From the IMG/VR virus record IMGVR_UViG_3300042691_036206, positions 1-64,000 of that record: a stretch of DNA of 64,000 bases, one strand, 5' to 3'. Shown here in pieces: positions 1 to 64,000 of the stretch (its first letter is position 1; each line of letters opens with the position of its first letter). The notes under the pieces were generated by a model. That model was given only the letters and a program-made list of their open reading frames with translations, was not told the origin of the DNA and made no database searches. Source of the stretch: a virus. The translations under genes were made by a program, and so were the position numbers.

Positions 1-371
1 TTCGCCTCCATCGCTTCCCTAGCTCTCTTCGCATTATGATGCGCATGACAAAGCGGCTGCAAATTCGAAAGGCTCGTCTTCGCTCCACCATCGGCGATTC
101 GCTTTATATGATCTACCATCTCCGCCAACCCCATCTTACCCTCTCGCCTGCATTCCCTGCACCATGGCTCCTTCCGCAGCACGTACTCCCGCGTCTTCTT
201 CCACACCGCCGAATCATAAAACTTCTTATCCCTTCTGTTCTCCTCACTCTGCATCCTCACCGCTGTCTTCTCCTTGAACTGCGCCTTCGTGTGGGTAGGG
301 CAGCGGCTTGAGGAGGTGACCAGCTCCGGGCAACCGGGGTGTGAGCATGGGCGAGGGGGCTTATTTGGCAT
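1..371 (-). CDS. HNH endonuclease, cut by the left edge
   Basis: Read on the minus strand from the ATG at 371; the gene runs off the window at base 1. The N-terminus has a zinc-knuckle-like part (PCSHPGC ... SRCPTH). The HNH core follows: WCRECRREGK, then DHIKRIADGG, then NLQPLCHAHHNAKRARE, so both CxxC pairs and the HNH histidines are present. HNH proteins of this type sit directly before small terminase in HK97-like phages and assist terminase in packaging. The order seen here (HNH leaving the left edge, portal entering from the right edge on the same strand) suggests terminase lies just outside. The start overlaps the end of a tiny upstream frame. Confidence 0.88.
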   Translation of the reverse strand, partial: MPNKPPRPCSHPGCPELVTSSSRCPTHTKAQFKEKTAVRMQSEENRRDKKFYDSAVWKKTREYVLRKEPWCRECRREGKMGLAEMVDHIKRIADGGAKTSLSNLQPLCHAHHNAKRAREAMEA

Positions 372-11350: not shown

Positions 11351-11646
11351 CGGATGCGGGGAGTGACGAGAGAATATCGTAGTGGCGAGTTTTGAACCTC
11401 ACCCCACAAGGCCGGGGTAATGTCCGGTCTCCCCGCTCTTATGGCCCCCTCGCAGACGGGACCTCTCGCAGTGCCCTTCACGGAGGGCAGTTCGAGCGGC
11501 GGAAGCGGCGTGGAAGGACACGCAGAGGTCGAGGGTGGGGCACCCGAGCCTCCCTGTACGGCACTGAAGTCGGGACCAAAGCCCCCAAAGCGCAGATAGC
11601 CGGTATCAAGCCCGGCCTTCCGCCGCTCAATGACAACAGGAGGCAA
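11351..11646 (+). other. Leader between promoter P2 and the next small gene
   Basis: About 300 bases without a convincing gene. An open frame runs through from 11392 but is arginine-rich and shadow-like. The leader is GC-rich with short complementary runs (for example CGGGGTAATGTCCGG), and ends at an AGGAGG site. A structured leader or attenuator is possible; no known riboswitch recognised. Confidence 0.35.
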
Positions 11647-13860: not shown

Positions 13861-14195
13861 CGCAGGAAGCATTTGAAGACAGCCTAGCGCGATTAGTGTG
13901 TGAGGGTATGAGTATGCGCGAGGCCGAGAGGCATTCTGACATTATTTACGCCCACGTCGAGGCGAAGGATAAGCGCATCGCAGAGTTGGAGAAGGAGATC
14001 GCTTTGTGGAAACGACTCCGTGATGAAGAAAAGGCGCAGGCGATCGTCCTCCGTGCTCGCATCGAGGGGGCAGAGAAGGTGCATCTGGGATTCAATGGCC
14101 AGTGGAGCACTAACGCTGGTGAACTCTTTAGCACTAGTTACAAAACAGTCTACGCGGTGCCGGTTGAGGTTGAGACGTTTGGGGGCGAGGGATGA
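13857..14195 (+). CDS. Hypothetical 112-aa coiled-coil protein
   Basis: Start at 13857 (ATGA overlap). Residues about 35-65 (AKDKRIAELEKEIALWKRL) form a coiled coil. The C-terminus is beta-like. Ends in the first copy of the 142-bp repeat. Confidence 0.6.
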   Translation: MTQEAFEDSLARLVCEGMSMREAERHSDIIYAHVEAKDKRIAELEKEIALWKRLRDEEKAQAIVLRARIEGAEKVHLGFNGQWSTNAGELFSTSYKTVYAVPVEVETFGGEG

Positions 14196-14329
14196 GCAGC
14201 GCTAAATTCTTTTTTCGTGTCGAGCTGTCCTCTAAGGCGGAGGACGACGTACGAGTGGAAACCTGGTACCACGGTATCGATATATCTGGGCCTTCAACAC
14301 GAAGCATATCTGATTGGGTTAGGGATTCG
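14188..14329 (+). repeat. 142-bp perfect direct repeat, left copy
   Basis: Identical to 15517-15658. It covers the end of an upstream gene's ribosome site, the ATG and the first 46 codons of the MSSAKFFF gene. Complete identity, including third codon positions, implies a recent duplication. Confidence 0.9.
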
Positions 14330-14461: not shown

Positions 14462-14730
14462 TCGTTAGAACTTATAGCGCTGGTGTCTTTGCAGGGACAA
14501 TCGCTGCGCGCAAAGGCCAAGAGGTAGTGCTGAAAAATGCACGGCGCATCTGGAAATGGGCAGGCGCGGCAAGCTTGTCGCAGCTTGCGCAGCAAGGAAC
14601 AAGCGCACCGGGAGAGTGTATGTTCCCCTGTGCGGTAGACCGGGTAGAGCTTTTACAAGCAATCGAAATCTTGGACGTAACGCCGATAGCTCGTAAGTCG
14701 ATCGAAGGAGTTCCGGTATGGCAAAAATAG
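14416..14730 (+). CDS. DUF6948-like protein
   Basis: 104 residues. A lysine-rich start (PTKKKATKSKGK) leads into VRTYSAGVFAGTIAARKGQ, VLKNARRIWKWAGAASLSQL and FPCAVDRVELLQAIEI, the pattern I know as DUF6948, found in phage and plasmid accessory regions and of unknown function. The last codons overlap the ATG of the Gly-Tyr repeat gene. The two look like a fixed pair, bracketed by 23-bp direct repeats. Confidence 0.7.
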   Translation: MPTKKKATKSKGKYVIVRTYSAGVFAGTIAARKGQEVVLKNARRIWKWAGAASLSQLAQQGTSAPGECMFPCAVDRVELLQAIEILDVTPIARKSIEGVPVWQK

Positions 14731-15005
14731 GCTACGGCTACGGCGACGGCGACGGCTACGGCGACGGCGACGGCTACGGCTACGGCGACGGCTACGGCTC
14801 CGGCTCCGGCGACGGCTACGGCTACGGCTACGGCTCCGGCTACGGCGACGGCTACGGCTACGGCTACGGCTCCGGCTACGGCTACGGCGACGGCGACGGC
14901 TCCGGCTCCGGCTCCGGCTACGGCTCCGGCTCCGGCTACGGCTACGGCGACGGCGACGGCGACGGCTTTAACGCCCCCACCGCGCAGGGCGAAGAGGAGA
15001 TATGA
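14718..15005 (+). CDS. Gly-Tyr/Gly-Asp/Gly-Ser dipeptide repeat protein
   Basis: Ninety-five residues. After MAKI the chain alternates glycine with Tyr, Asp or Ser for about 80 residues, then ends FNAPTAQGEEEI. The DNA is a run of GGCTAC, GGCGAC and GGCTCC hexamers, which can slip during replication. The tyrosine-spaced glycine chain is intrinsically disordered and resembles low-complexity stretches that self-associate. It is coupled to the DUF6948-like gene. The opposite strand is also open over this tract but only as Ala-Val repeats, clearly a shadow. Confidence 0.7.
   Translation: MAKIGYGYGDGDGYGDGDGYGYGDGYGSGSGDGYGYGYGSGYGDGYGYGYGSGYGYGDGDGSGSGSGYGSGSGYGYGDGDGDGFNAPTAQGEEEI
14974..14996 (+). 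repeat. 23-bp direct repeat, right copy
   Basis: Identical to 14341-14363; here it encodes the end of the GY-repeat protein (APTAQGEE). The distance between copies is 633 bases. Confidence 0.85.
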
Positions 15006-15250
15006 GCGAGCAGTTCGAGAAGTGGAACGGTGACTATGAGAAGCGACCATACGAGGTGAAGGTTTGGCCTGGTGACATTGTCACTTGCTATCCCAATGCA
15101 GGACGCATGATTGACCTGAAGACGGGGCGTTCGTATGGGCCAGAGGACGTAGAGGGAATCAGGCCGATTACGTGGGATGAGTATTGGAAGAATACCGAGG
15201 GAATTACGAGCCCCACAGACGACAAGCAGTTAGCAGCGGGGAAGGCATGA
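15002..15250 (+). CDS. Hypothetical 82-aa protein
   Basis: ATGA overlap with the GY-repeat gene. Contains KVWPGDIVTCYPNAGRMIDL and WDEYWKNTEG, acidic and aromatic. Ends LAAGKA with the same junction sequence as the gene at 13098. Unknown function. Confidence 0.55.
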   Translation: MSEQFEKWNGDYEKRPYEVKVWPGDIVTCYPNAGRMIDLKTGRSYGPEDVEGIRPITWDEYWKNTEGITSPTDDKQLAAGKA

Positions 15251-15453: not shown

Positions 15454-15524
15454 GGTTTGCCATGTTCGGATTGTTGGTGATTGGGTACGTGTGCCTTCTT
15501 TTTATAGCAGTGGGGAAGGGATGA
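15444..15524 (+). CDS. 26-aa membrane peptide
   Basis: ATG at 15444 after GGGTGAGGG, overlapping the upstream stop. Nearly all hydrophobic (LGFAMFGLLVIGYVCLLFIA), a single membrane helix. The stop overlaps the next ATG (ATGA). Function unknown. Confidence 0.5.
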   Translation: MDLGFAMFGLLVIGYVCLLFIAVGKG

Positions 15525-15658
15525 GCAGCGCTAAATTCTTTTTTCGTGTCGAGCTGTCCTCTAAGGCGGAGGACGACGTACGAGTGGAAACCTGGTACCA
15601 CGGTATCGATATATCTGGGCCTTCAACACGAAGCATATCTGATTGGGTTAGGGATTCG
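15517..15658 (+). repeat. 142-bp perfect direct repeat, right copy
   Basis: Identical to 14188-14329, offset 1329 bases. Homologous recombination between the copies would delete the DUF6948-like gene, the GY-repeat gene and three more, leaving one intact MSSAKFFF gene. Confidence 0.9.
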
Positions 15659-26617: not shown

Positions 26618-26652
26618 CGGGTACTTTGATCGGGTACTTTGCCCGCTATAAT
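26618..26652 (+). promoter_or_regulatory. Integrase promoter with CGGGTACTTTG repeats
   Basis: Two exact copies of CGGGTACTTTG (26618 and 26631, 13-base spacing) run into a consensus -10 TATAAT at 26647-26652. The repeats probably bind the integrase or a repressor; the -10 is the best in the window. Confidence 0.55.
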
Positions 26653-26692
26653 GCACTCGTGCCCTTTTCCCGTCGCACGAGGAGCGTCCGCC

Positions 26693-27793
26693 ATGCGAGC
26701 CAACAAAGTCTGGAAGCGAAAAGACACCGGCTGGTTCTACACGAAGATCGACCGCAAGCGAATTCGCCTCTCGAAGAATCGGGGCGAAGCCGAGCAGATG
26801 ATGCACGAGCTTCTTTCCGAGCGGAAAAAGAAGGCGGAGGACGAGTCTCTCGGGACGAAGGCGTTTCCGTCTTTCCGAAAAATCGCCGATCTCTTTCTTG
26901 AAAACTCCGTCACGGAGAACAAGCCGACCACGTACCGTGCTCACAGGATGTTCCTGCAATCCGCCTGCGACTCCTTTGGGAAGAAGAGAATTAACGACCT
27001 CAAGGTTCATCACGTCACCGCCTGGCTCAAGGAGGAGCGAAAGGCTCAACCTCGCGAGCCGAAACTCGACGAGAAGGGCAACGTCAAGAAGCAGGCGACC
27101 GCTCGAAAAGGGAAAAAGGGCCCGTGGGGAGCGAGCACGGAATGCTCCGCGAAAGGCACCATCTTGGCGGCGTTGAATTGGGCCGTCGATCAGGGCTACA
27201 TCTCGTCGCACCCGCTGAAGAAACTGAAGCGTGGCACCCACAAGAGACGCGAACGTGTCTTCACCGCCGATGAGTTGAAGAAAATCCAGGACTTCGTGAA
27301 ACCCGACTTCCGGGATTTCCTTCGGGCCTTGGAACTGACCGGCGCCAGGCCATTCTCGGAACTCGCCACCCTGACCGCAGAGATGATCCACTGGGACGCC
27401 GAAATCATTCCATTCGATGAACATAAGAACGAGGCGAAGGGGAAATCACGCACGATCTACATTGTGCCGGAGCTGATGGAAATTCTGAAGCGGCTGGCAG
27501 CGAAGCATCCAAAGGGGCTTCTCTTTCGCAACTCTCGAAATAAGATCTGGACCTCTCACGACGCCACTCGCCGACTGCACTACGCGACCCGGAAACTCGG
27601 GATCCCGAAGGGGACGATCTATGCGGTGAGGCACAAATTTATATCTGATGGCCTAGAAAAAGGGCTGAACGCGAATGTCATTGCGGAGCTATGCGGCAAC
27701 AGCAGCATCACGATCGCAAGGCACTATGATCACGTATCGAAGCGAAAAGCCGCCATGCTGGAGGCGGCCAGGAAGGTCGTCGCGGTGAGCTAG
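26693..27793 (+). CDS. int: Tyrosine recombinase (phage integrase)
   Basis: 366 residues from the ATG at 26693. An N-terminal arm (WKRKDTGWFYTKIDRKRIRL), a SAM-like core-binding domain (ITENKPTTYR area to WLKEERKAQP), then the catalytic domain: ELTGARPFSEL (first Arg), YAVRHKF (second Arg), and IARHYDHVSKRK with the nucleophilic Tyr. The usual histidine of the LGH motif is replaced by Asn (LCGNSS), an allowed variant. It would catalyse integration of the circular phage DNA. Confidence 0.9.
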   Translation: MRANKVWKRKDTGWFYTKIDRKRIRLSKNRGEAEQMMHELLSERKKKAEDESLGTKAFPSFRKIADLFLENSVTENKPTTYRAHRMFLQSACDSFGKKRINDLKVHHVTAWLKEERKAQPREPKLDEKGNVKKQATARKGKKGPWGASTECSAKGTILAALNWAVDQGYISSHPLKKLKRGTHKRRERVFTADELKKIQDFVKPDFRDFLRALELTGARPFSELATLTAEMIHWDAEIIPFDEHKNEAKGKSRTIYIVPELMEILKRLAAKHPKGLLFRNSRNKIWTSHDATRRLHYATRKLGIPKGTIYAVRHKFISDGLEKGLNANVIAELCGNSSITIARHYDHVSKRKAAMLEAARKVVAVS

Positions 27794-28029: not shown

Positions 28030-28245
28030 TTACCGGATATGTTTCAACGGTCCGTCATCCACACCACAAGGATCCTCCACGCGGCACGACGCCAGCATCA
28101 CCGTGATATCCTCATCCTTGAGGAGAATCTTCCCCTTACCATGCACGCCGACGCGGTAGTACGGCAGTTTTCCTATTCGACACAGCTCGTAGAGCAGCGA
28201 CTTTGAGAGCGGGTACTTCTTTGCGGCGTCGGCAATGGTCATCAT
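28030..28245 (-). CDS. Excisionase-like HTH protein
   Basis: Seventy-one residues from the ATG at 28245 after GGAGAGGTG. TIADAAKKYPLSKSLLYELC followed by IGKLPYYRVGVHGKGKIL is the MerR-like winged helix of phage excisionases (HTH_17). Its place two genes from the integrase supports a directionality role. Confidence 0.72.
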   Translation of the reverse strand: MMTIADAAKKYPLSKSLLYELCRIGKLPYYRVGVHGKGKILLKDEDITVMLASCRVEDPCGVDDGPLKHIR

Positions 28246-28280
28246 CTGGCACCTCTCCTTCTTCTCTGGGCCGACATCCC

Positions 28281-29033
28281 TCACGCCACCACCAACTCCA
28301 GCCGCCGTGGCCTCGGGAACTCCTGCACCACCGCCCCGTCAAGCATCGGCTCCTCGCAAGGAACGCCCTTATCGTCTAGGTACGCCTGCTTGAAGAAGTG
28401 CGTCTTCCCAGCTTCCTTGCACTGGTTGTCGATGTCACGAACCCAGTCCATGTCCATGATGCGTCGGGTGCCTTTCGCCGCACGCTCGCAGCCCGTGATG
28501 ACCCAATCGATCCATGAAAGGTGTTCGCGGAAGTCCATGCGTTCAATGAGTGGTTCGGCCGAGACGAACTTCACCGCTGCCGGGACCGCCTTCAGGAGCG
28601 GCAAGCGATACAGCGACTTCGAGCAACCACAGGTGACGCCGAGCCATACGTTCGGATAGCCTTCGACCCAATCTGCCGGTAGGCGGTCGGGGATGAGATG
28701 TGGACGCTTCGTGAGGATGAGCCAATCGAGGTTCTGGCAGTCCTTGATGATCTTCCAGACGTCGGGCCGCCAGGCATCGGCGCCTTGATGGAAGAAGTCG
28801 GACATGCTGCACGTGAAGACGCGATGACGCTCGCCGAGTTTCGCGGCCTCACGATCCCAGGCATAAGGAGCACGCCAGGTTTTTGTCTTCATCGGGCCAT
28901 TGAAGGGCTCGTACCCTCCACGGCGCATGATGCTGTCGATGTAACAATGGTCGCATTCTGGGGTGACTTTGTTACAGCCCCACCAAGCGTTGAAAGAATG
29001 ATGCGTCCAACCGATCTTCGAATTCTTTGGCAT
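28281..29033 (-). CDS. DUF5131 (phage Gp37/Gp68) family protein
   Basis: 250 residues from the ATG at 29033. Cysteine-rich opening (IGWTHHSFNAWWGCNKVTPE, CDHCY), then HRVFTCSMSDFFHQGAD, LDWLILTKRP and VSAEPLIERMDF, which are diagnostic blocks. The family has a radical-SAM-like fold; CxxxxxxxCDHCY-type cysteines could bind an Fe-S cluster. Its reaction is unknown. Frequent in phages and plasmids. Confidence 0.88.
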   Translation of the reverse strand: MPKNSKIGWTHHSFNAWWGCNKVTPECDHCYIDSIMRRGGYEPFNGPMKTKTWRAPYAWDREAAKLGERHRVFTCSMSDFFHQGADAWRPDVWKIIKDCQNLDWLILTKRPHLIPDRLPADWVEGYPNVWLGVTCGCSKSLYRLPLLKAVPAAVKFVSAEPLIERMDFREHLSWIDWVITGCERAAKGTRRIMDMDWVRDIDNQCKEAGKTHFFKQAYLDDKGVPCEEPMLDGAVVQEFPRPRRLELVVA

Positions 29034-29106
29034 GGTAGTTCTCCTGTATGGTGGCTTAGATTCTGGTACTTCTAGTCCCGTCTGTAAACGCCTCAACTGC
29101 CTCCAT

Positions 29107-29304
29107 TCAATTCTCCGACGGTCGACACAGCCGCTGATTTTCCAACGCTCGCAGTTCCTTCCACTTCTCGATCGCGTCGACGATCACGTGGTAGAAGAGA
29201 TCGACCGCATCGTCGAATTCCCCTCCACGCTTCCTCAAGGCACGGGCCAAGGCATGAGCGGTGCCCCAGGCGATGTCGTGGGTCAATCGCGTGTCATTGT
29301 TCAT
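29107..29304 (-). CDS. Hypothetical 65-aa helical protein
   Basis: Start at 29304. Helical throughout (IAWGTAHALARALRKRGGEF, VIVDAIEKWKELRALENQ). Part of the mobilisation transcript. No family recognised. Confidence 0.5.
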   Translation of the reverse strand: MNNDTRLTHDIAWGTAHALARALRKRGGEFDDAVDLFYHVIVDAIEKWKELRALENQRLCRPSEN

Positions 29305-29320
29305 GGCGCCCCTCCCTTTC

Positions 29321-29617
29321 TTACCCACGGTGTTCGTCGAGGTACTTCTCAAGCCAAGCAGTTGACCTTTCACCGAATCGATCCATGCCCCGTTCAAAAG
29401 CCTTGCCCAGCACCTTGATCGTGTGGGCCAATATCGCCGCCGCGATAAACACCGCCAGGGCGAAGAATGGAGAACTTCCATCGCTGGATTTTTCAGTCGC
29501 AATTCGAATGCTTCCGGTGAACACCACCATCAGCACGATCCAGCAGTCGATGACCACCAGGGTCGTAAACCCCTTGTCGTAAGCGTTTTTGAGAAACTGT
29601 TTGATGCTCTGCCACAT
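29321..29617 (-). CDS. Small membrane protein in the mobilisation operon
   Basis: Ninety-eight residues from the ATG at 29617. Two hydrophobic segments (FTTLVVIDCWIVLMVVFTG and FFALAVFIAAAILAHTIKVL), then a charged C-terminus. It directly follows the coupling-protein-like ATPase, so it may help anchor the transfer machinery. That role is an inference from position. Confidence 0.6.
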   Translation of the reverse strand: MWQSIKQFLKNAYDKGFTTLVVIDCWIVLMVVFTGSIRIATEKSSDGSSPFFALAVFIAAAILAHTIKVLGKAFERGMDRFGERSTAWLEKYLDEHRG

Positions 29618-29653
29618 GACAAACTCCTTGGAAAAGGGATGCAAAAAAACCAC

Positions 29654-31042
29654 CTATTCGCGACTCGCTCTCACCACTTCAGCGGGGAAATTCAAACGAG
29701 TCGTCCATTCACGATCTTCGATGTCTTCGAGTACTTCCCACTCTGGCGGGACGGGCTTGCCCTCCGACGCCGGGGGGACACCGTCGTAAACGTGGAGGAA
29801 GGGGATCGAGAACTTGAAAGGGCCATCTGGGAAGTCGGCATAGCCCTCAATGAAGTCCTTGCCCTTCTCAGGGCAAGCGCGACTGAGCCGCATCAATTCA
29901 TCTGGCGACACGTTGGCCCAGTTTTTCACCGTGGTGTTTGCCTTGTCTGTCCTGGGTGCCGTCCAGGCCATGCCGGTGTAGACAGGATTCACGACCTCCA
30001 GCACATCGCAGCTTCCGAGGTACGCCGAGGCCCACTTCGCCATGTCCGGAGATCCGCACTTCATGAACGCCTTGAAGGCGAGAAGCGCTGCGATTTCTTC
30101 GGCAACGTTTTTTCCGTACTGCTCAGCGAGACCGAGGATTTCGTGCAACGTGACCACAGGGCACATTCCACTTTTCCTCCCACGACGGCAAATTTTCAAA
30201 AGACCTTCCAGCGGCACCATCGATGCGATTTCGTCGCAGCCGAACCAATGTCGTGTCTGCGTGACGCGGGAGAGCCCGTAATCGGCGATGGTGTCGAGAG
30301 CAAAAGAGAACAGGCCCGATTGCACGCTGGCGTAGCGGTCGACCCAGCGGAAGACGTTCCAACCCTTGCCCGTGAGAAGGGGCTCCAGGAAGCTCGCCTT
30401 TTTTGGGGCTTTCTCTGACAGGGCGGCGTATACGGACAACTGCATCAGTTTGGTCGCGACCGTTGCCTGTACGTCCCTGCTGGTATCGCCAGCGTGGCCC
30501 AGAGGGGCGTAAACATCGCCCACGCCTGGAACCAACTTCCCCGCCTCCGAAATTAAACGATGGTCCTTTGCCAACCGCACAACATCCGCCAGGCGCCACT
30601 TCTTCGGAGCGAAGTGATGGAGGATATGAAGTGCCGCGATGAGGATGATCTGGGCCCAAGCATCGAAGAAGTTGTTCTTTCCGCGATTCTCCTGCGGGGC
30701 CATCTTTTGGGCGAAGCGGACTCGCTCGGTCTGCGTCGTAATGTCCGCCGCCAGGTCCATTGCCGTCCCACCCTCACAGTGAACTTGGAACTCATTTACC
30801 TCGACTCCGTTAGCCTTCAGCAGCGGCGTGAGACTTCCGTCGGCATCCACGGCAGAGCCGGAGTCGCCATTTCTCGCAGCCGCTCTGAAGAGCATTGCGG
30901 CCAGCGAGCTTTTGCCGCAGCCGGGAGCGCCGGTGAGGAGGAAGCCCAGCGACTGCAAGGCGCTGATGACCCACCGGCCGCAGAACGGAACGGATAGCGG
31001 TGGAACTTCCAGAGGCCTTTCGCGAAAAATATTTCTAAACAT
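29654..31042 (-). CDS. VirD4/TraG-like conjugative coupling ATPase
   Basis: 462 residues. Walker A LTGAPGCGKSSLAAM (37-51), Walker B WFGCDEIAS, then RRGRKSGMCPVVTLHEI, where the arginine-rich loop and sensor strand of FtsK/VirD4-type ATPases lie. It has no transmembrane segment; the 105-aa membrane protein encoded just upstream with an 8-base overlap probably supplies it. Coupling proteins deliver relaxase-bound DNA to a type IV secretion system. No secretion system genes are in the window. Confidence 0.78.
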   Translation of the reverse strand: MFRNIFRERPLEVPPLSVPFCGRWVISALQSLGFLLTGAPGCGKSSLAAMLFRAAARNGDSGSAVDADGSLTPLLKANGVEVNEFQVHCEGGTAMDLAADITTQTERVRFAQKMAPQENRGKNNFFDAWAQIILIAALHILHHFAPKKWRLADVVRLAKDHRLISEAGKLVPGVGDVYAPLGHAGDTSRDVQATVATKLMQLSVYAALSEKAPKKASFLEPLLTGKGWNVFRWVDRYASVQSGLFSFALDTIADYGLSRVTQTRHWFGCDEIASMVPLEGLLKICRRGRKSGMCPVVTLHEILGLAEQYGKNVAEEIAALLAFKAFMKCGSPDMAKWASAYLGSCDVLEVVNPVYTGMAWTAPRTDKANTTVKNWANVSPDELMRLSRACPEKGKDFIEGYADFPDGPFKFSIPFLHVYDGVPPASEGKPVPPEWEVLEDIEDREWTTRLNFPAEVVRASRE

Positions 31043-31352
31043 TGGAGTCTCCTTTCTTCAGCCCATCGCCGCGAATGACGATCTGTCCGACGCCGTGAGG
31101 CTTCGGTCGGCTCCACTCCGTGATGGCCTGTAAGATCGAAATCAAAACGAATTCAAAAAACACCACGCTTGCGATGACGATCGCCCCCATCACAAACGGA
31201 TGCCTTTGAATGAACGTGGGGTCGATGGCCCTACTGATTGCCAGCGGCGCCACGATCGCCACAGCGAGAGTGACCCACACTGACAACTCCAGAACGACTC
31301 TGAAGAAGAACCACTTCAGCGGCCTGAGAAAAATCACCCGGAGAATCTCCAT
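31035..31352 (-). CDS. Membrane protein, probable anchor of the coupling ATPase
   Basis: 105 residues with two or three hydrophobic helices (FFRVVLELSVWVTLAVAIVA, FVMGAIVIASVVFFEFVLIS) and a short cytoplasmic tail. It lies between the relaxase and ATPase genes, overlapping the latter. In VirD4 proteins the N-terminal membrane domain is fused to the ATPase; here the two parts appear separate. Confidence 0.65.
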   Translation of the reverse strand: MEILRVIFLRPLKWFFFRVVLELSVWVTLAVAIVAPLAISRAIDPTFIQRHPFVMGAIVIASVVFFEFVLISILQAITEWSRPKPHGVGQIVIRGDGLKKGDSNV

Positions 31353-31372
31353 GACGCACCTTCCCTTTCTGG

Positions 31373-32812
31373 TTAATGGCGATTTCTGCGTTCTTGCCTG
31401 CGACTCTGAATCAAGGGCTCATCCTGTCCCTTCACGTAAACAGCGACGTTATGCTTCTCCGCTGCGATGCGGAGCTTCTGAAGTTCTTTCGAGGTCATCG
31501 CGGTCGCGGCGGCTTTCGAGAGGACGACACGATCGCCGCTTTTGAGCTTGATATGGGGCTCTCTCGCTCGCTGATACGCATACTCGGCGCGTAGCAGGGC
31601 TTCTCTGAGGGTGTGAAACGGATTGCCTTGGTACAGCGATCGGATCGCGGCTCTGTGAGCTTCTGGGCGCGATCGCTTCTTGATGTCATCCAGAAAAGCG
31701 GGAACGCTCTTCACCCGGTAATCACGTGAAGCTCCGAGGTTGACGACCTTGACCGCCGCACCGATGACTCGCAACGGAAGCACGACAAACTCATCAAGGA
31801 GCCTTTGCAACCGACCGGGTGTCTTGAATTCTTTTTCTGGTTGGCTTTTTGCCGCGACCGTTGCCGCTGTCTTTCTAAACGAAGGTTTCTGCGCACCCTT
31901 CGCGGCATCCTCTTTTGCGGAAGGCTCGTCTTTGATCCAGCCCTGGCTCCGCCCATGTTGCAACAGAGCTTGTCCCGCGAGCGGCTTCCACGTCTCGACC
32001 AGTTCCGCACGTGTATACGCAACGGGCGGGCACGTGCGAGTGTTCAATGCGGCGTAGGCTTTCGCCTGCGGTGTCGGCTCGATGCCCTTGCTCTCCAGGT
32101 AGTTCTTGATTTGTTCGCTGCGTTTACCGACCAACGCCATCAGCTCAGGGGGCACGCCTTGCACCACAGCCACGCCGCGATTGAAGCCGATGTTCCACTT
32201 AAATTCCTGGGCGAGTTCTTTACCGAGGGCCGCTTGGAACGCCATCTGATACAGCTTGTCGATGCGGTAGTACTGGCGGAGGTCGCCAAGCTTCAACGTC
32301 TTGCCGGTTGCGGTAACGCCGTACCGTGAGAGCCGACGGTGAATGTGCCAATGAATCCCGCCACCGTTGTCGGTCGCGTGGATGACGCGGCGGACCACTG
32401 GAATCGCAGGAACGATTTTCTTTCCCTGGGCGCCAGAGCGTACGTGCCAACCCTTCGCCATCACTACCTTGAAGGCCACGTCATCCGCTCGCTTCAAGCA
32501 GTCCGCCATCTTCTGGAACGCCGCGGGGCCTTCCATTACCAGGACCACGAGGAACATTGCGTTTACTGACTTGTCCGTGCCGCTGACCATCTCGAAGGGG
32601 CGCGTGTCTTTGCGGTTCTTCTGAACGCGGATGGCCGGACTTCCGTCTCCCCGCTTCTCCTGAGCGTGAAGGCGGTTTTGCTCTGGATCGTTGGCGTCGG
32701 TGAAGCCAATCAGAGCGGCCGGGCCCATGAAGTCGGCCCCACCACCATGCTCGATTGCGTCCTGGTTGTACTTCTCAGAGAGGGAGTACTTCTTCGTCGT
32801 GCGAGTTATCAC
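31373..32812 (-). CDS. MobF-type (TrwC-like) relaxase
   Basis: 479 residues. Candidate catalytic tyrosines lie at the N-terminus (Y9 and Y15 in KYSLSEKY). KSVNAMF matches the motif after the first strands, and H145 with H154, H156 and H158 (IHWHIH) form the three-histidine metal site. QYYRIDKLYQMAFQAAL and GVPPEL complete the TrwC relaxase domain. The C-terminus is short: the helicase domain of TrwC/TraI is absent, so only nicking and transfer of the cut strand are encoded. Upstream accessory gene overlaps by four bases. Confidence 0.85.
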   Translation of the reverse strand: MITRTTKKYSLSEKYNQDAIEHGGGADFMGPAALIGFTDANDPEQNRLHAQEKRGDGSPAIRVQKNRKDTRPFEMVSGTDKSVNAMFLVVLVMEGPAAFQKMADCLKRADDVAFKVVMAKGWHVRSGAQGKKIVPAIPVVRRVIHATDNGGGIHWHIHRRLSRYGVTATGKTLKLGDLRQYYRIDKLYQMAFQAALGKELAQEFKWNIGFNRGVAVVQGVPPELMALVGKRSEQIKNYLESKGIEPTPQAKAYAALNTRTCPPVAYTRAELVETWKPLAGQALLQHGRSQGWIKDEPSAKEDAAKGAQKPSFRKTAATVAAKSQPEKEFKTPGRLQRLLDEFVVLPLRVIGAAVKVVNLGASRDYRVKSVPAFLDDIKKRSRPEAHRAAIRSLYQGNPFHTLREALLRAEYAYQRAREPHIKLKSGDRVVLSKAAATAMTSKELQKLRIAAEKHNVAVYVKGQDEPLIQSRRQERRNRH

Positions 32813-33219
32813 GGTTGCACCGCCTTCTCCTCCGCCATGAACTTCGCAATGTCGCCTGAGAGATAGACCTCATTCACGAGCGCCACCGCCGTAGCGGTGT
32901 CGAGAGATTCCCCGCGACGTTGTTGTGTCGAGAGCAGGAGCACGGCCAGCTCGGCCAACAGGGCTTTCATCTCTGCGGGCTGAATCCCCACGTGAGGCGG
33001 CGGCAGTGGCGCGTTTCCGTCCGGCAAGCAGCGGTGTTCGAGGGCCCACGAAATGAGATCGTGGCCGAGCGTGCTCTCGGTGGTCTCAAGTTCCTTCGCC
33101 AACGCTCGAAATGCTGCCTTCATCTTGAGCGGCACTCGCACGCTGATAGTCGTTGTCGGCTCACTGTTGCCGATGATGGTTTCACGCGGGTCAGGCTTGA
33201 TGGTGTCATCACTGTCCAT
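32809..33219 (-). CDS. Ribbon-helix-helix-like relaxosome accessory protein
   Basis: 136 residues. TTISVRVPLKMKAAFRALAK is a beta strand plus helix typical of RHH/Arc-like DNA-binding proteins; the rest is helical with an acidic end. Located immediately before the relaxase, it is a likely nic-site binding partner (MobC/TrwA type role). Confidence 0.6.
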   Translation of the reverse strand: MDSDDTIKPDPRETIIGNSEPTTTISVRVPLKMKAAFRALAKELETTESTLGHDLISWALEHRCLPDGNAPLPPPHVGIQPAEMKALLAELAVLLLSTQQRRGESLDTATAVALVNEVYLSGDIAKFMAEEKAVQP

Positions 33220-33430
33220 GGTCGCTACTCCGAAAGCGGTTGAGGAAGCGGGTGAAGATTGTCGGCGAGGACTGCGGGGCGGGCGACGAGGACCAAAGAA
33301 AGTCTTCGAGGCGCTTGTGAGCTTCGATCTCTTCCGGCGTCCGGCGAGCGTCGAAGAACGCCTGGATGGGATCGTCGGGCTCGTAGGGAGCCTGGTAGCC
33401 CTCGAAAAAGTCCCTGATGGGATCTGACAT
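33209..33430 (-). CDS. Hypothetical 73-aa protein heading the relaxase operon
   Basis: Start at 33430. Repeated PIRDFFEGYQ and PIQAFFDARR suggest an internal duplication of a short helix. It overlaps the accessory gene by 11 bases. Unknown function. Confidence 0.5.
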   Translation of the reverse strand: MSDPIRDFFEGYQAPYEPDDPIQAFFDARRTPEEIEAHKRLEDFLWSSSPAPQSSPTIFTRFLNRFRSSDHGQ

Positions 33431-33628
33431 GGGTGTTTGCCTTTCAGTTTGCGTAAACCTGTGGCAGCTTTCGACCGGCCGAATTCTTACCACCGAATGC
33501 AAGAAAGCCAAGTTTTGGAGTGAGCAGTTTTGAGCGCAACTCTAGGCGCATCATCGAGATAATTTTCTTGAGATTTATTTCTGTAACTCTAAGAGGGCCA
33601 ATGGCTTAAAGGGCATTCGGTTGGCCGG

Positions 33629-33732
33629 GCGAGGACATCAAGATTAGCGTTTCGGCCTGTGGAATGTGTTGCCCCGGCGAGGACATTAAGAACAGCGTTC
33701 GCCCGCCTCGGCGAGGACATGAAGATCGATGG
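33629..33732. repeat. Three direct repeats in the 400-bp gap before the relaxase operon, oriT candidate
   Basis: GGCGAGGACAT-(C/T/G)-AAGA recurs with GCGAGGACAT beginning at 33629, 33677 and 33711; the first two extend to AGCGTTTCG/AGCGTTCGC. The 400 bases from 33431 to 33830 hold no convincing gene, and 33541-33600 is AT-rich. Repeats plus an AT-rich part immediately upstream of an RHH protein and relaxase are where oriT usually lies. Confidence 0.5.
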
Positions 33733-33830
33733 GTGGAGAGGTGGTCATCTGTCAATGAACCTTTTTGAAAACCTCTCCTGAACTGTCGTGTGCCAATCCT
33801 GGCATCCCATCCGTGGGCATCCATTCTGGA

Positions 33831-34196
33831 CTAGAAGCGATCGCCGACGTCGTTGCCGTCGTCACTTCCACTTTCGCCACCGCCGCCGACGTTGGTTCCG
33901 TTCTGCTGAGCGAGCCAGATCCACGCCATGCGTGAACACTCAGCGACAACGAGCAAATCGTCCCGACCGAAAGTTGTCGCCGACTTCCACTGTCCTTGGC
34001 CGTCCTTGTAGTTCCGCGTCATCGTGACGCTGTACCACACGCCTTCCTTGCTCTCGTTCTCCCAGATTGTCGCCTTGATGCGACCGCATCGGATCTCGTG
34101 AGCGGGAGGTCGACGACCATTCCCTTGATCGCGGTTCTGCTGCTGCTGCGGGGCGTCGTTGCGACCGACCGTCTGCGTTCTCTTTTGAGGAGCCAT
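33831..34196 (-). CDS. Hypothetical 121-aa protein of planctomycete type
   Basis: Start at 34196. A glutamine/asparagine-rich head is followed by EIRCGRIKATIWENESKEGV, VTMTRNYKDGQGQWK and DDLLVVAECSRMAWIWL, an ssDNA-binding-protein-like small beta/helix domain. I recall near-identical layouts in planctomycete genomes and plasmids. The C-terminus is Gly/Asp-rich. Function unknown. Confidence 0.7.
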   Translation of the reverse strand: MAPQKRTQTVGRNDAPQQQQNRDQGNGRRPPAHEIRCGRIKATIWENESKEGVWYSVTMTRNYKDGQGQWKSATTFGRDDLLVVAECSRMAWIWLAQQNGTNVGGGGESGSDDGNDVGDRF

Positions 34197-34335
34197 GACG
34201 GCACCTCTCCTTTCTTGAAAGTTCGTGACATGGAGATGTTCCAGACACAAGGAAAAGAAAAACAGCGGCCTCGCTCCGAGCGAAATGCCGCTGAGAAATC
34301 CACGGCCCGGCATCCGTTCCGGGGGTTGTGCGTTG

Positions 34336-35079
34336 CTACACCGCGAGGGAGCGATCCGGCAGCATGAGACCATTCAGGCGAATGGTTTGCGAGACGAACA
34401 CTTGCGGCGCCGTGATGGCACGTTCCTTCAGAACTTCCGTGAAGGCATTGAAAAGGCCCCAGCCTGTGCGGGCCCGGAACTCTTCATGTGGCGGATTCTC
34501 CCACTGCTCGCAGACCTTGGGAATCTGAAGCGTCGAGATGATTCCGCGGTGAAAGGCCTGAAGGATGATGTGACTTGCCGCCTCCGGCGTGAGTTCCATC
34601 TCCATCATTCGCTTGATGCGGTGTTCCTCGGCATCCTTGAACGACGCAAGCGACGTGACTGCGGTACCGATCGCCGTGCCGAAGGCCCGCATGCCATTGA
34701 TCGTGTGTTTTCTGCGGACGAGCAACTCGGCTCGGAATGCCAAATTGTCACAGCAAAAAACTCTTGATCCAGCCGCGAAGCCGAGCGGAAAGGACTTGTC
34801 GGTACTGTTGCGGATCCCGACCGAAAGACTGACGCCCTGAGCGAGCGGAGTTGTCAGGTCGAGAACGCCGAAGAAGCGTGCTCCATCACGAGCGAGCGCG
34901 AGCTTTTGACTCGCGATCTGGTATCCCGCTCCTGAGAGCGTTTCACGAACAGTCGCTAGCACTGTCGTGTGGGCCGTAGGATGCCACCGCCCTTCGGGCG
35001 GTGGAGTCCTGCAAGCCTTCAGCTCGTCGAGCGTGACGAGCCGCCCGCCCGCGTGAAGCACGAGCGCTCCTTGAGACAT
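34336..35079 (-). CDS. DUF932 phage/plasmid-like protein
   Basis: 247 residues. DUF932 blocks visible: GYQIASQKLALARDGARFFG, LSVGIRNSTDKSFPLGFAAG, and VFCCDNLAFRAE. The family is common on plasmids and phages next to replication or transfer genes; its function is unknown. It belongs to the leftward cluster that leads to the relaxase genes. Confidence 0.85.
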   Translation of the reverse strand: MSQGALVLHAGGRLVTLDELKACRTPPPEGRWHPTAHTTVLATVRETLSGAGYQIASQKLALARDGARFFGVLDLTTPLAQGVSLSVGIRNSTDKSFPLGFAAGSRVFCCDNLAFRAELLVRRKHTINGMRAFGTAIGTAVTSLASFKDAEEHRIKRMMEMELTPEAASHIILQAFHRGIISTLQIPKVCEQWENPPHEEFRARTGWGLFNAFTEVLKERAITAPQVFVSQTIRLNGLMLPDRSLAV

Positions 35080-36273: not shown

Positions 36274-36478
36274 ATCGGATAAATTCAGGCACCGGGGAGG
36301 TTGATTTTGGGCAGAGTGACTCAAAAGTTACGCGATCGCACAGATTCTCTGTTGGGGGGATTCTGTCTCTCGACAAGGCTCCCCCCAGGCCCACCGACAT
36401 AACCTTCTCCGCACGTGTTGGTGCTTTCCAACCCTTCCAGGTGACACCAACCCTACGGCCATCCTCCTCGGTGAGCAC
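36266..36478 (-). CDS. Hypothetical 70-aa protein, start uncertain
   Basis: GTG at 36478 after GGAAGA. VGVTWKGWKAPTRAEKVMSV is protein-like. The frame stays open and protein-like for another 28 or so codons upstream (YRLDGWQGSQFRRFRSGRTT) behind a good GGAGG, but no ATG, GTG or TTG starts it. It may be a decayed or rearranged gene. Family unknown. Confidence 0.4.
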   Translation of the reverse strand: MLTEEDGRRVGVTWKGWKAPTRAEKVMSVGLGGALSRDRIPPTENLCDRVTFESLCPKSTSPVPEFIRSR

Positions 36479-37204
36479 TGTCGTTCTTCCAGAGCGGAAA
36501 CGACGGAATTGACTGCCCTGCCATCCGTCGAGCCTATAAACCTCCTTTCTAAAACCTTGGGCCCCGCCTTTAGCCGGACAACCTCCTACAGAACTTTGCG
36601 CGTCCTACCCGTGCTCGCTCTCCCCTCTGCCAGAACCTTCTGTCCTTGAAGGGCAGAGGCTCCCGAATTGTCGACGGCTGTCATGTGGTGGTCACGTCGT
36701 CGAGCGGCGTATTCGACCGCACGGCGGGCGGGTGCTCCAGAAGTTCCCCGCTAGAACACTCACCCCTCGGTAGCCCGAGGGCTTTCACCCTTGGAACGCA
36801 CAAGACAGGGTTACCGCCCCGCCCGCGTTCTGAACTATTTGGCACCGTCTCCGTCCACACGTACTCGATTGCAGTTGCCTGCGTGACCCTTTGCGCTACT
36901 TGCCCGTCATCCCTCGCGGGTGACTGGTTCCAGGGTCGAGCGAGGTTGAGGCGACCACGTGGGTCATCCGCCCCCTCGGCGGCGCAATGTATATTTGGCT
37001 ATACAAGAACCACTGGTCTTGCATACTCCAGTAGACATTACGCCGCTTCAGCCGCCATCCCATCGTCGCACGCGAATCGGTATTGATTCTTCCCCACTGA
37101 ACAAGGGCCTCTCGACCCATTCAGCGAGCCCGATTTGGTGGTGAAGGGGCGTCGGTGTGCCCAGGATAGGCCGGGGCCGAGATATGGGAAACAGACGAAA
37201 CCGG
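36479..37204 (-). other. Weakly coding or non-coding stretch
   Basis: About 725 bases without a convincing gene. Short minus frames exist (one at 36896-37120 with WRLKRRNVYWSMQDQWFLYS). Notable structure: TGTATA-TTTGGC-TATACA near 36990, CCTCGG-TAGC-CCGAGG near 36766, and many G/C-rich arms. A structured RNA or a degraded gene are both possible; no known RNA family, tRNA or intron core was recognised. Confidence 0.35.
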
Positions 37205-61321: not shown

Positions 61322-64000
61322 CTATGCCGCTTCAATTAGATCGTTTCCACTGTACCCCAAAAGTCGCTCCGCCCAATAGATGGCAAGTTCGTCCTCACGG
61401 TGGTTGTACCCACTGGCCGGTTCTGCCTTCCATGCGTCTACGCGATCACGAATGCTCATACGATACTCATCAAGCATGACGGGAAGCACGAGATCGACAT
61501 CCAGGCCCCTGAGCGAGCAGTATGCACGCGCCATTTCTCGCAAGCATTCAGCGGAGTATGCACGATGGTCGGTGACAAACTCGTCGAACCACGGGTCAAA
61601 GTCGTCGCCCTTCTTCCGGGCCGCCGCCTTGACCGCATTTATCTCCTTTCTAACGACCCGCTGCCAGGTCTCCAGAAAAGCGCCTCGAAATGCGTCATTT
61701 ACACGAGATTTCTCGTCTTTTTCGGGCTTTTCTTCGGTTTTGGGGGCGTTTTGTGCCGGTTTTTGTGCCGGTTCCTGAGGGTCTTTTCCTTCCTCGCCAG
61801 CCGGAACCATGTTCATTGGAGACAGGTAAATGTCGCCTTCCGGACCGATCGGATTCATGTCTTCTAGCCCACGTACGTCATTCTTGCTGAGATAGCCCCA
61901 CTGAATGCCCTGGCTGTAGAACTGCGAACGGGCGGCAGAATCTCCTCTGAGGAGAGCGTTCGCCACATGCTTCACGAAGTACCGCTCATCGTCCCCATCG
62001 AGAAGATCCCGAACGATGGCCTGCTCCCATCGCTCCATCCAAGGGCGAAGGCAGTAGGTCAGGAACTCCTGAGACTGCGTTTCGATATTTGAGTTATGAA
62101 CGACCACACCGTTTGCAATAAATGAATGAGTCTCTTCAACTTCCAGGTCGTAAACCAGTTCAGGGGTTTCCGATTCCTCGATCTCTTGAATAAGATGGAT
62201 ACTCAGACCATCACCAATGTCGCTCTGCCGTTGCTCGCAAGGATCCATTGGATTCTCGCGCCAATGACGCTTCTTTAAAGCTCGTACTACTCGCCTTGTA
62301 TACTCAGGCGTATGGGTTCCAAGAAGTATCGCATCCGCCGGGCCGCTCAGCTGTAGAATATGCAGAATGTGCGTGTAAGCCTTGCCGTTGAAGGCGCTAT
62401 CAACTTCCGACTCAAAGATATTTGCCACGCCTAGTCCAACAGAGATCGCTAAATGGCGAATCTGAGACATCATGGACTTATTAACTGAGCAGAACCGCAC
62501 TCTTCCACTCGGCGAAACGGTACCATCTGCGTCGAGGTATCCTCTGAGAAACGCCAACTTCAGCTTACGGTTGAGCTTAAATACCCAAGCCGGTACGCGC
62601 TTGGTATGACTGGTGCCAATCATTCCAAGCTCTTCCAGCTCCCTATAAGCCAATCCAGACCAAAATGTTGTGGTGTTTTTGTCGCGTAGGGAATGAGTAA
62701 TCGGGGCAGTCTCCGCATACCGCTGCCCATACGGGCCGCAGTACTGCCGAAATTCCGCTTCGACTGCCCGGACGTAGTATGGCATATACGAAGCGTTCTC
62801 AGCATGCGAGATGCCGAAACCTCCAGGCCCCTTTTTGCTCTTGAAGAAGAAACCGTCACCGAGCAACATGCCCAGTACTTCCATGAACTGCTCTGTCACG
62901 ACCTCCCGAGTAGGGCAACTTGCAATATCCTCGTCGGGCAAACACTCCGCTCCTACGAGATAGTCCCCGGTTTCGATCTCACCTGCCGGGACGTATTCCA
63001 ACTCCCATCCCCGGCGATACTTCTTGCCTTCAATCGTGAGGTATTTGCCCTGCCCACCTTCATATTGCAAATGAACTTCGCGGCGTACGAGTAGACGATG
63101 CCGAGCGTTACATCTGACGGTTCGCCCGCGTGCGTGGAAAGTCAGTACCTTGTCTTCGCCTGAACACGCAGACCTCAATACTCGTGATTTCTTCCATCCG
63201 CCCTTTGGATCAAGGCTCCAAACCAGGTCCCCAGCCTTCACACTTGCAATCGATACCGGCCCGTTCTCGGTAAATACTTCCTGATCGGCTGGCAGGCAAA
63301 ACGTCGATCTCGTCAAATCCCCGAGCAGATGCGGCGGAACGCCGTAGATTCGCGCAATTTCTTCGACACTAAAGCGCCGTTGCTCAAGGAACTGGGCGTC
63401 CGCCTGCGGAATGCCCATCGGTTTCCACTTGACGTTAGCCTCAAGGACCGCGACCTTCTTACCGCGATTCTTTCCACCATGGAGCTTTTCCCAGCTAGTG
63501 CGAAGGTTTTCCCTCGCCTCGTCTGGCATCGCGCCTTCGTATTCCAGCACGCCGGTCGGGAACGCTCCACTTGAAAAGAAGTTGGTACCGAAGCTCTCTA
63601 GGGCCAGGCCCGCCTCGATGGCCTTACGGGCCGCAGCAATTACCGAAATGCCTTCCAGGCCGCCATCGCGAAAACCGCGAACATGAAGCACCTCGTCACC
63701 AGGCAGGATGACCGTCTCACCGTTGTCGGCCTTCACCTCGTACACGATCTCGCCGTTCTTCATCTTCGGCGTGACCCGTGAAGGGTGCATCGGAATAAGC
63801 TCCAGTGGATCACCCTCCATGTTTCTCAGGATCTGGGCGTAGCCGTTCCCCCAAAGAAGCATGTGCCCGGTCAGCATCTCCCGGAACTCGAAACTCGTCG
63901 TCTTTCGCTTGTTGGGCGTGGTCTTTAGAATCTTGTAGAGCGGGTGCCGTACCGCCTTATCCTTGCCACCGTCCTTCTGGCGCTTGTAGGTGATGAGTGG
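61322..64000 (-). CDS. Portal protein with intein, cut by the right edge
   Basis: The frame is open from 61322 to the window end; earlier codons (HPLYKILKTTPNKRKTTSFE) precede the internal Met at 63877, so the N-terminus lies outside. Exteins: MLLWGNGYAQILRNMEG, EIARIYGVPPHLLGDLTRST, then after the intein SNIETQSQEFLTYCLRPWME. The exteins join at the highly conserved TRSTF-SNIE motif. The C-terminal 250 residues are a charged tail. The portal is the DNA channel of the head. Confidence 0.93.
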   Translation of the reverse strand, partial: PLITYKRQKDGGKDKAVRHPLYKILKTTPNKRKTTSFEFREMLTGHMLLWGNGYAQILRNMEGDPLELIPMHPSRVTPKMKNGEIVYEVKADNGETVILPGDEVLHVRGFRDGGLEGISVIAAARKAIEAGLALESFGTNFFSSGAFPTGVLEYEGAMPDEARENLRTSWEKLHGGKNRGKKVAVLEANVKWKPMGIPQADAQFLEQRRFSVEEIARIYGVPPHLLGDLTRSTFCLPADQEVFTENGPVSIASVKAGDLVWSLDPKGGWKKSRVLRSACSGEDKVLTFHARGRTVRCNARHRLLVRREVHLQYEGGQGKYLTIEGKKYRRGWELEYVPAGEIETGDYLVGAECLPDEDIASCPTREVVTEQFMEVLGMLLGDGFFFKSKKGPGGFGISHAENASYMPYYVRAVEAEFRQYCGPYGQRYAETAPITHSLRDKNTTTFWSGLAYRELEELGMIGTSHTKRVPAWVFKLNRKLKLAFLRGYLDADGTVSPSGRVRFCSVNKSMMSQIRHLAISVGLGVANIFESEVDSAFNGKAYTHILHILQLSGPADAILLGTHTPEYTRRVVRALKKRHWRENPMDPCEQRQSDIGDGLSIHLIQEIEESETPELVYDLEVEETHSFIANGVVVHNSNIETQSQEFLTYCLRPWMERWEQAIVRDLLDGDDERYFVKHVANALLRGDSAARSQFYSQGIQWGYLSKNDVRGLEDMNPIGPEGDIYLSPMNMVPAGEEGKDPQEPAQKPAQNAPKTEEKPEKDEKSRVNDAFRGAFLETWQRVVRKEINAVKAAARKKGDDFDPWFDEFVTDHRAYSAECLREMARAYCSLRGLDVDLVLPVMLDEYRMSIRDRVDAWKAEPASGYNHREDELAIYWAERLLGYSGNDLIEAA
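62093..63298 (-). mobile_element. Intein with LAGLIDADG homing endonuclease inside portal
   Basis: 402 residues, first residue Cys (CLPADQEVFTENG), last residues VVVHN before extein Ser. Splicing block B is GRTVRCNARHRLLV; block F is LVYDLEVEETHSFIANG. The endonuclease carries two LAGLIDADG helices, MEVLGMLLGDGFF and LAFLRGYLDADGTVS. The insertion site is the most conserved portal motif, as usual for inteins. Confidence 0.92.

What the first reader, a model, noticed from the sequence alone, without database searches (positions are those of the whole stretch)
29321..33430. Conjugation-type mobilisation module inside a tailed phage genome
A MobF relaxase (metal histidines H145, H154, H156, H158; candidate tyrosines Y9/Y15), an RHH accessory protein, a membrane protein and a VirD4-like ATPase form one leftward operon inside a genome with a full HK97/lambda-like head and tail. 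The coupling protein is split: the membrane anchor (31035) and ATPase (29654) are separate, overlapping genes. The relaxase lacks the helicase half of TrwC/TraI. The DNA might move by conjugation as well as by virions, a mode rarely described. If the genome really is a phage-plasmid, this would be a mobilisable phage.
Basis: partly seen in the sequence, partly recalled or inferred. Interest (0 to 1): 0.92.

Follow-up and report, generated by a model that had tools for sequence, protein, structure and literature searches.

The report
Conjugation-type mobilisation genes in a phage
A complete tailed temperate phage, and a distant cousin of it from another sample, both carry a small gene cluster like the ones plasmids use to be handed from cell to cell, which suggests (but does not prove) that these phages could spread by mating bridges as well as by virus particles.

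Summary
The window is most of a 66,654-bp IMG/VR phage genome with an HK97-type head and a siphovirus tail. At 29.1-33.5 kb lies a leftward operon: RHH-like protein, MobF/TrwC-type relaxase (Pfam TrwC 45 bits, cut-off 25), 2-TM protein and TrwB/VirD4-type coupling ATPase (94 bits, cut-off 20.5).
It is not an assembly chimaera. The nearest kin phage (67,172 bp, another metagenome, 69% GC, TerL 73% identical) has the same cassette order in the same place, and the two contigs are opened at different points. The two ATPases are sisters in a small tree (100/98).
MobF hits in 50,697 phage records: two unverified faecal scaffolds. No PHROG family matches either protein.
Corrections: there is an integrase but no ParA, ParB or VirB4, so the best reading is an integrating, mobilisable prophage needing a helper secretion system, not a phage-plasmid. 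The metal triad is H145/H156/H158. In the kin phage the relaxase's catalytic half is unrecognisable and one metal His is missing, so activity is not assured across the lineage. Three 16-nt direct repeats just upstream are a candidate oriT or operator. Conjugation is inferred, not shown.

The parts
33512..33830 (.). 319-bp non-coding gap upstream of the operon; three copies of GGCGAGGACATNAAGA (33628-33643, 33676-33691, 33710-33725); candidate oriT or operator
   Evidence: 3 exact copies, 5 matches at <=2 mismatches in the window against 0.18 expected; no significant folding (z -1.07)
33209..33511 (-). 100-aa ORF, first of the leftward run, unknown
   Evidence: no Pfam or PHROG hit
32809..33219 (-). 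136-aa RHH-like putative relaxosome accessory / operon regulator
   Evidence: weak Pfam RHH_1 (E 0.18); same position as a 146-aa ORF in the kin phage, no significant pairwise similarity
31373..32812 (-). MobF/TrwC-type relaxase, 479 aa, no helicase domain; H145/H156/H158, candidate Y9/Y15
31035..31352 (-). 105-aa protein with two predicted TM segments (14-44, 51-79), putative membrane anchor of the coupling ATPase
   Evidence: hydropathy; overlaps the ATPase gene by 8 bp; a membrane protein of similar size lies at the same position in the kin phage
29654..31042 (-). TrwB/VirD4-type coupling ATPase, 462 aa, Walker A GAPGCGKS, Walker B-like WFGCDE, no TM segment
29321..29653 (-). 110-aa membrane protein with two predicted TM segments
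   Evidence: no confident family
29107..29322 (-). about 65-72-aa ORF; homologue follows the ATPase in the kin phage (both end in PSEN)
   Evidence: z 5.9, 0 of 300 shuffles
28281..29096 (-). DUF5131 protein, present here but not in the kin phage's cassette
   Evidence: 187 bits (cut-off 28.9)
28030..28284 (-). HTH_17 (excisionase/AlpA-like) protein, 60% identical in the kin phage
26639..27793 (+). tyrosine integrase; 55% identical in the kin phage by tblastn
33831..34373 (-). conserved 180-aa protein flanking the cassette (41% in kin)
34336..35079 (-). DUF932 protein flanking the cassette; DUF932-like ORF at the same position in kin

Best explanation
This is a temperate, integrating siphovirus that carries a mobilisation cassette of the plasmid/IME type, kept in at least one other phage of its lineage. 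Proposed working: after excision (integrase plus HTH_17 protein) or during replication, the RHH protein and the MobF-type relaxase bind a site near the operon (candidate: the repeat-bearing gap 33512-33830) and the relaxase nicks it. The 2-TM protein and the VirD4-type ATPase couple the relaxase-DNA complex to a type IV secretion channel supplied by a co-resident conjugative element. The phage genome can then enter a neighbouring cell as single-stranded DNA, besides moving in virions. Shown: gene identities, operon order, intact ATPase motifs, metal triad in the window protein, conservation of the cassette's order and place in a second phage, absence of VirB4. Inferred: nicking, oriT position, docking to a helper channel, actual transfer.
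For: TrwC and TrwB families over their Pfam cut-offs. HHalign of the window relaxase with plasmid MobF: probability 97.7% over residues 139-316. H145/H156/H158 spacing identical to plasmid MobF. Same order RHH position - relaxase - membrane protein - ATPase - ~70 aa - HTH_17 - integrase in kin phage G001. ATPases of the two phages are sisters, 100/98; 126 bits to each other against 102 and 59 bits for the best plasmid hits. Direct repeats in the gap just upstream. Mobilisable elements often encode their own relaxase and coupling protein to use a helper's secretion system (PMC11389934).
Against: No oriT proven. The catalytic N-terminal stretch of the relaxase is not covered by any profile match, and the kin protein shows no significant similarity there and lacks the first metal His. 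No mating-pair genes (VirB4 absent), so transfer needs an unidentified helper. The host is unknown. The ATPase lacks its own TM helices in the window. AlphaFold models were useless (pLDDT 30 and 38).
Confidence: 0.5

Rival explanations
1. The cassette interferes with conjugative plasmids: the coupling-protein mimic, the 2-TM protein and a relaxase mimic occupy the host's type IV channel or bind rival relaxosomes, giving the lysogen fertility inhibition or plasmid exclusion, without moving phage DNA.
For: The catalytic half of the relaxase is not conserved between the two phages while the ATPase and the distal relaxase part are. The cassette sits in the accessory region between lysis genes and integrase, where lysogenic-conversion genes are common. 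Fertility-inhibition proteins acting on coupling proteins exist on plasmids (title and abstract of PMC5696584).
Against: The window relaxase keeps the metal triad, and the ATPases keep Walker motifs; a decoy would not need a relaxase, an RHH protein and an upstream repeat region together. No PADLOC match beyond a weak P-loop similarity to mad8.
Confidence: 0.2
2. The relaxase and ATPase serve phage DNA replication, segregation or ejection inside the cell (relaxase as rolling-circle initiator, ATPase as an FtsK-like DNA mover), not intercellular transfer.
For: HUH relaxases and rolling-circle initiators are related (established knowledge). The genome has primase and helicases but no recognised initiator.
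Against: The ATPase belongs to the TrwB coupling family and carries the TraG-D_C region, and the gene order is that of a mobilisation operon. The phage has its own terminase, primase and helicases.
Confidence: 0.15
3. A captured integrative mobilisable element that is now decaying: once functional, no longer active in the phage.
For: The kin relaxase lost the first metal His and has no recognisable catalytic half. The cassette diverged much faster than the core phage genes (ATPase 26% against TerL 73%).
Against: All frames are open, with good ribosome-binding sites in the window. The ATPase and order survived a divergence from 57 to 69% GC.
Confidence: 0.12
4. Assembly or binning chimaera of a phage with a plasmid or ICE fragment.
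For: The reads could not be examined. An exact-match scan for a 38-nt piece of the cassette found no further contig.
Against: An independent contig from another metagenome has the cassette in the same place with homologous flanks on both sides. The two contigs are permuted relative to each other and each spans the other's ends. No jump in GC across the cassette.
Confidence: 0.03

Closest known systems
MobF/TrwC-TrwB mobilisation units of conjugative and mobilisable plasmids (R388 TrwC/TrwB, F TraI/TraD, Cereibacter and Novosphingobium MobF plasmids)
   Same: Relaxase domain of the TrwC family with H-x10-H-x-H; TrwB/TraD-type ATPase in the same operon
   Different: Relaxase without helicase half; ATPase about 460 aa against 612-802 aa for the bacterial T4CPs found, TM part on a separate protein; no mating-pair genes; located inside a phage genome
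Integrative and mobilisable elements (IMEs) that carry their own relaxase and coupling protein
   Same: Tyrosine integrase next to a relaxase + coupling-protein cassette, no T4SS of its own
   Different: The element also has a complete head, tail, packaging and lysis set
P1-like plasmids that gained mob/oriT (Pfeifer and Rocha 2024, PMC10879196)
   Same: Phage-derived element with conjugation functions
   Different: [quoted passage not shown] here the virion gene set is full and the element appears to integrate
Streptococcal 'conjugative prophage' Phi1207.3 (PMC4260502) and prophage-ICE composites such as phi-SgaBSJ31_rum (MN270259)
   Same: Prophage reported or expected to move by conjugation
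   Different: The Phi1207.3 paper does not mention a relaxase and leaves the mechanism open; phi-SgaBSJ31_rum carries Tn5252/TrsE-type ICE genes
Planctopirus limnophila phage-plasmid pPLIM01 (NC_014149)
   Same: Best plasmid match of both integrases by bit score; TerS, TerL, portal and connector homologues at 31-36% identity
   Different: No relaxase or coupling protein annotated; has a ParB-family protein

Membership tests
MobF (TrwC) relaxase | Significant match to the TrwC relaxase domain | tested here: met
   Pfam PF08751 45.2 bits, cut-off 25; NCBIfam MobF 47.7 bits, below its equivalog cut-off of 100
MobF (TrwC) relaxase | Three-His metal site with H-x10-H-x-H spacing | tested here: met
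   H145, H156, H158 align with plasmid MobF; in the kin protein only the HxH pair remains
MobF (TrwC) relaxase | N-terminal catalytic tyrosine pair(s) | tested here: inconclusive
   Y9-x5-Y15 matches the spacing in Cereibacter and Novosphingobium MobF, but the stretch is outside every profile match; MAFFT pairs Y9 with the second Tyr
MobF (TrwC) relaxase | Fold (palm with HUH site) | tested here: inconclusive
   AlphaFold models too poor (mean pLDDT 30.4 and 38.1)
MobF (TrwC) relaxase | Site-specific nicking of oriT | not testable with these tools
   needs a nicking assay
Type IV coupling protein (VirD4/TrwB) | TrwB_AAD_bind domain over the cut-off | tested here: met
   94.5 bits, cut-off 20.5, residues 32-388; kin 48.1 bits
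Type IV coupling protein (VirD4/TrwB) | Walker A and Walker B motifs | tested here: met
   GAPGCGKS and WFGCDE; kin GVKRSGKT and WFNADE
Type IV coupling protein (VirD4/TrwB) | N-terminal TM anchor in the same chain | tested here: not met
   No TM segment in the window ATPase; a separate 2-TM protein precedes it; the kin ATPase has one N-terminal hydrophobic segment. VirD4 proteins without a TM anchor are known from established knowledge, so this makes it an atypical member; the family claim rests on the ATPase domain only
Conjugative (self-transmissible) element | Mating-pair apparatus including VirB4 | tested here: not met
   PF03135 absent from both phages
Phage-plasmid | Plasmid partition genes | tested here: not met
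   ParA (PF13614) and ParB (PF02195) absent from both phages; an integrase is present. Rep families were not tested
Tailed temperate phage (HK97-type head, siphovirus) | Terminase, portal, protease, major capsid, connector, tail tube, tape measure, lysis, integrase | tested here: met
Integrative mobilisable element with oriT | oriT adjacent to the relaxase operon | tested here: inconclusive
   Repeat-bearing non-coding gap upstream, no significant fold, no known oriT compared

The most novel reading that the evidence does not exclude
A lineage of complete temperate tailed phages has two working routes between cells: packaging into virions, and conjugative mobilisation of the excised genome by its own MobF relaxase and coupling ATPase through a borrowed type IV secretion channel.
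Probability: 0.4. Interest if true: 0.88.

Novelty: new variant of a known kind. Interest (0 to 1): 0.7.

Why it matters
Phages and conjugative elements are normally separated by how they travel. Elements derived from phages that gained conjugation genes have so far been described mainly after losing their virion genes. A phage lineage that keeps a full virion set and a mobilisation cassette across large divergence would make 'one element, two transfer routes' directly testable. It could also explain transfer beyond the receptor-limited host range and give a natural system for studying how small a relaxase and coupling protein can be.

Tried and rejected
Chimaera or mis-binning: rejected on an independent syntenic kin genome. 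Phage-plasmid: rejected on integrase present and ParA/ParB absent. Self-transmissible element: VirB4 absent. Known defence system: only a weak P-loop match to mad8. oriT by folding: no signal in either phage. AlphaFold models of both relaxase domains: too poor to search, so no fold search was run. Wider search for cassette relatives: no further cassette in IMG/VR by relaxase or ATPase patterns; none among the other related phage records checked for the ATPase by profile, many of them fragments; none in INPHARED. Host: integrase scan of genome contigs gave nothing and TerL gave only 36-42% relatives in Alphaproteobacteria; a hint of Planctomycetota rests on the integrases' best plasmid hit by bit score. 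Planctomycetota genomes could not be searched. In 399 Pseudomonadota genomes the ATPase found only 8 distant matches, best 67 bits at 25% identity. RHH, 2-TM protein, relaxase N-half and C-terminal part: position-matched in kin, but pairwise similarity is not above shuffles. One search was a mistyped pattern and carries no information.
Full report
WHAT THE WINDOW IS. The window is bases 1-64,000 of a 66,654-bp IMG/VR virus record. It encodes TerS, TerL, portal, protease, major capsid, head-tail adaptor, tail tube, tape measure and a lambda J-like tail protein, a phage lysozyme (41270-41749), primase, helicases, a Sak4-like annealing protein and methyltransferase-like proteins, and a tyrosine integrase. 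The record has no terminal repeat. In the kin phage G001 (67,172 bp, IMGVR_UViG_3300045454_000119) the region matching window 106-371 (an HNH-like gene) lies directly upstream of TerS, while in the window these are the two contig ends; conversely G001 is opened at its integrase, a region the window spans. Both records therefore look like near-complete, circularly permuted genomes. Near-identical fragments of the window phage occur in three other IMG samples: L042 (100%, 4.3 kb), L045 (99.95%, 4.4 kb) and L080 (99.99%, 8.5 kb); none covers the cassette.

THE CASSETTE. On the minus strand, in order: 100-aa ORF (33511-33209), RHH-like (33219-32809), relaxase (32812-31373), 2-TM protein (31352-31035), ATPase (31042-29654), 110-aa membrane protein (29653-29321), a ~70-aa ORF, DUF5131, HTH_17, then the divergent integrase. 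Start codons mostly overlap the previous gene or follow a good ribosome-binding site. The relaxase matches Pfam TrwC (45.2 bits, cut-off 25) and the ATPase TrwB_AAD_bind (94.5 bits, cut-off 20.5). NCBIfam's MobF equivalog is aligned over residues 37-277 but below its cut-off, as expected for a distant member. H145, H156 and H158 align with the metal histidines of plasmid MobF proteins; Y9 and Y15 have the spacing of the MobF tyrosines but lie outside the profile matches. The ATPase has intact Walker motifs and its sequence reaches TrwB in the PDB.

IS IT REAL AND CONSERVED? G001 (57% against 69% GC; core proteins mostly 45-73% identical) carries, at the same place between a DUF932-like/180-aa pair and HTH_17-integrase, an ORF at the RHH position, a relaxase-like protein, a small membrane protein, a TrwB-family ATPase (48.1 bits) and a ~70-aa protein. 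G001 also has a divergent HTH gene in this stretch (L052:10155-10937) that the window lacks. Pairwise tests against shuffles: ATPase z 63, distal relaxase part z 15, ~70-aa protein z 5.9 with no shuffle reaching; relaxase N-half z 1.9, and RHH, TM and C-terminal parts not above chance. In a small tree the two phage ATPases are sisters (100/98), with a Calothrix plasmid protein nearest outside and six Pseudomonadota T4CPs and two Cereibacter TraD proteins elsewhere; the kin ATPase is a long branch, so its place is less sure than the support suggests. The ATPase was probably present in a common ancestor or exchanged within this phage lineage, while the relaxase's catalytic half diverged beyond recognition in G001, where the first metal His is gone.

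HOW UNUSUAL. A plasmid MobF domain used as query finds two of 50,697 phage records and a TraD query finds six; the listed records do not overlap, and those hits are faecal scaffolds (the two I opened are marked unverified) or two streptococcal records of the prophage-ICE type (the annotation of one of the two, MN270259, was read). The sensitivity of single-sequence tblastn is limited, so this shows rarity, not absence. No PHROG family matches either protein. In the literature held, P1-like phage-plasmids lack mob/oriT in all but two cases, and the P1-like plasmids that have them are described as no longer phages (PMC10879196). Phi1207.3 is called a conjugative prophage without a known mechanism (PMC4260502).

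MECHANISM. Most likely the prophage is mobilisable in trans: relaxase + RHH at a site near the operon, ATPase + 2-TM protein to dock on a helper's type IV channel. The 319-bp gap upstream holds three exact copies of a 16-nt repeat (5 matches at up to 2 mismatches against 0.18 expected), which would suit an oriT or an operator; G001's 275-bp gap has other, weaker repeats. Neither gap folds better than shuffles. VirB4, ParA and ParB are absent from both phages, so it is neither self-transmissible nor, on this evidence, a phage-plasmid. Interference with conjugative plasmids, an intracellular DNA role, or decay of a captured element remain open.

LIMITS. Reads, host and function could not be tested. 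Only two members of the lineage with the cassette are known here. Both structure predictions failed. Host phylum is unresolved; a Planctomycetota hint rests on weak integrase and packaging-gene similarity to pPLIM01.

Noticed in passing
window 61322-64000 (portal gene, runs on to 64195 of the record): The portal protein is interrupted by an intein with a LAGLIDADG endonuclease domain (Pfam Intein_splicing 41.9 bits, LAGLIDADG_3 31.1 bits); the kin phage's portal lacks it (the flanking parts match contiguously).
   Followed up: partly
window 14183-14329 and 15512-15658: A 147-bp direct repeat, 99% identical, 1,329 bp apart; the contig L080 of the same phage ends inside it, as an assembly break at a repeat would.
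   Followed up: partly
window 14688-15020: Tandem array with 12/18-bp spacing inside a short ORF region: repetitive sequence of unknown role.
   Followed up: no
window 36381-36568 and L052:6942-7130: A largely non-coding stretch upstream of the 235-aa gene is 70% identical between the two phages, unusual for their overall divergence; possible regulatory site or origin.
   Followed up: no
window 11527-11620: A stretch of 96 aligned bases 85% identical to the kin phage, the highest DNA identity between the two genomes in the parts compared.
   Followed up: no
window 28281-29096: DUF5131 protein within the cassette region, matching candidate defence families PDC-M41B and PDC-M30B in PADLOC (145 and 141 bits); absent from the kin phage's cassette.
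   Followed up: no
L074 (NC_014149.1, Planctopirus limnophila pPLIM01): This 37-kb plasmid is annotated with terminase, portal, protease, capsid, tail genes and a ParB-family protein, so it looks like a phage-plasmid of Planctomycetota.
   Followed up: no
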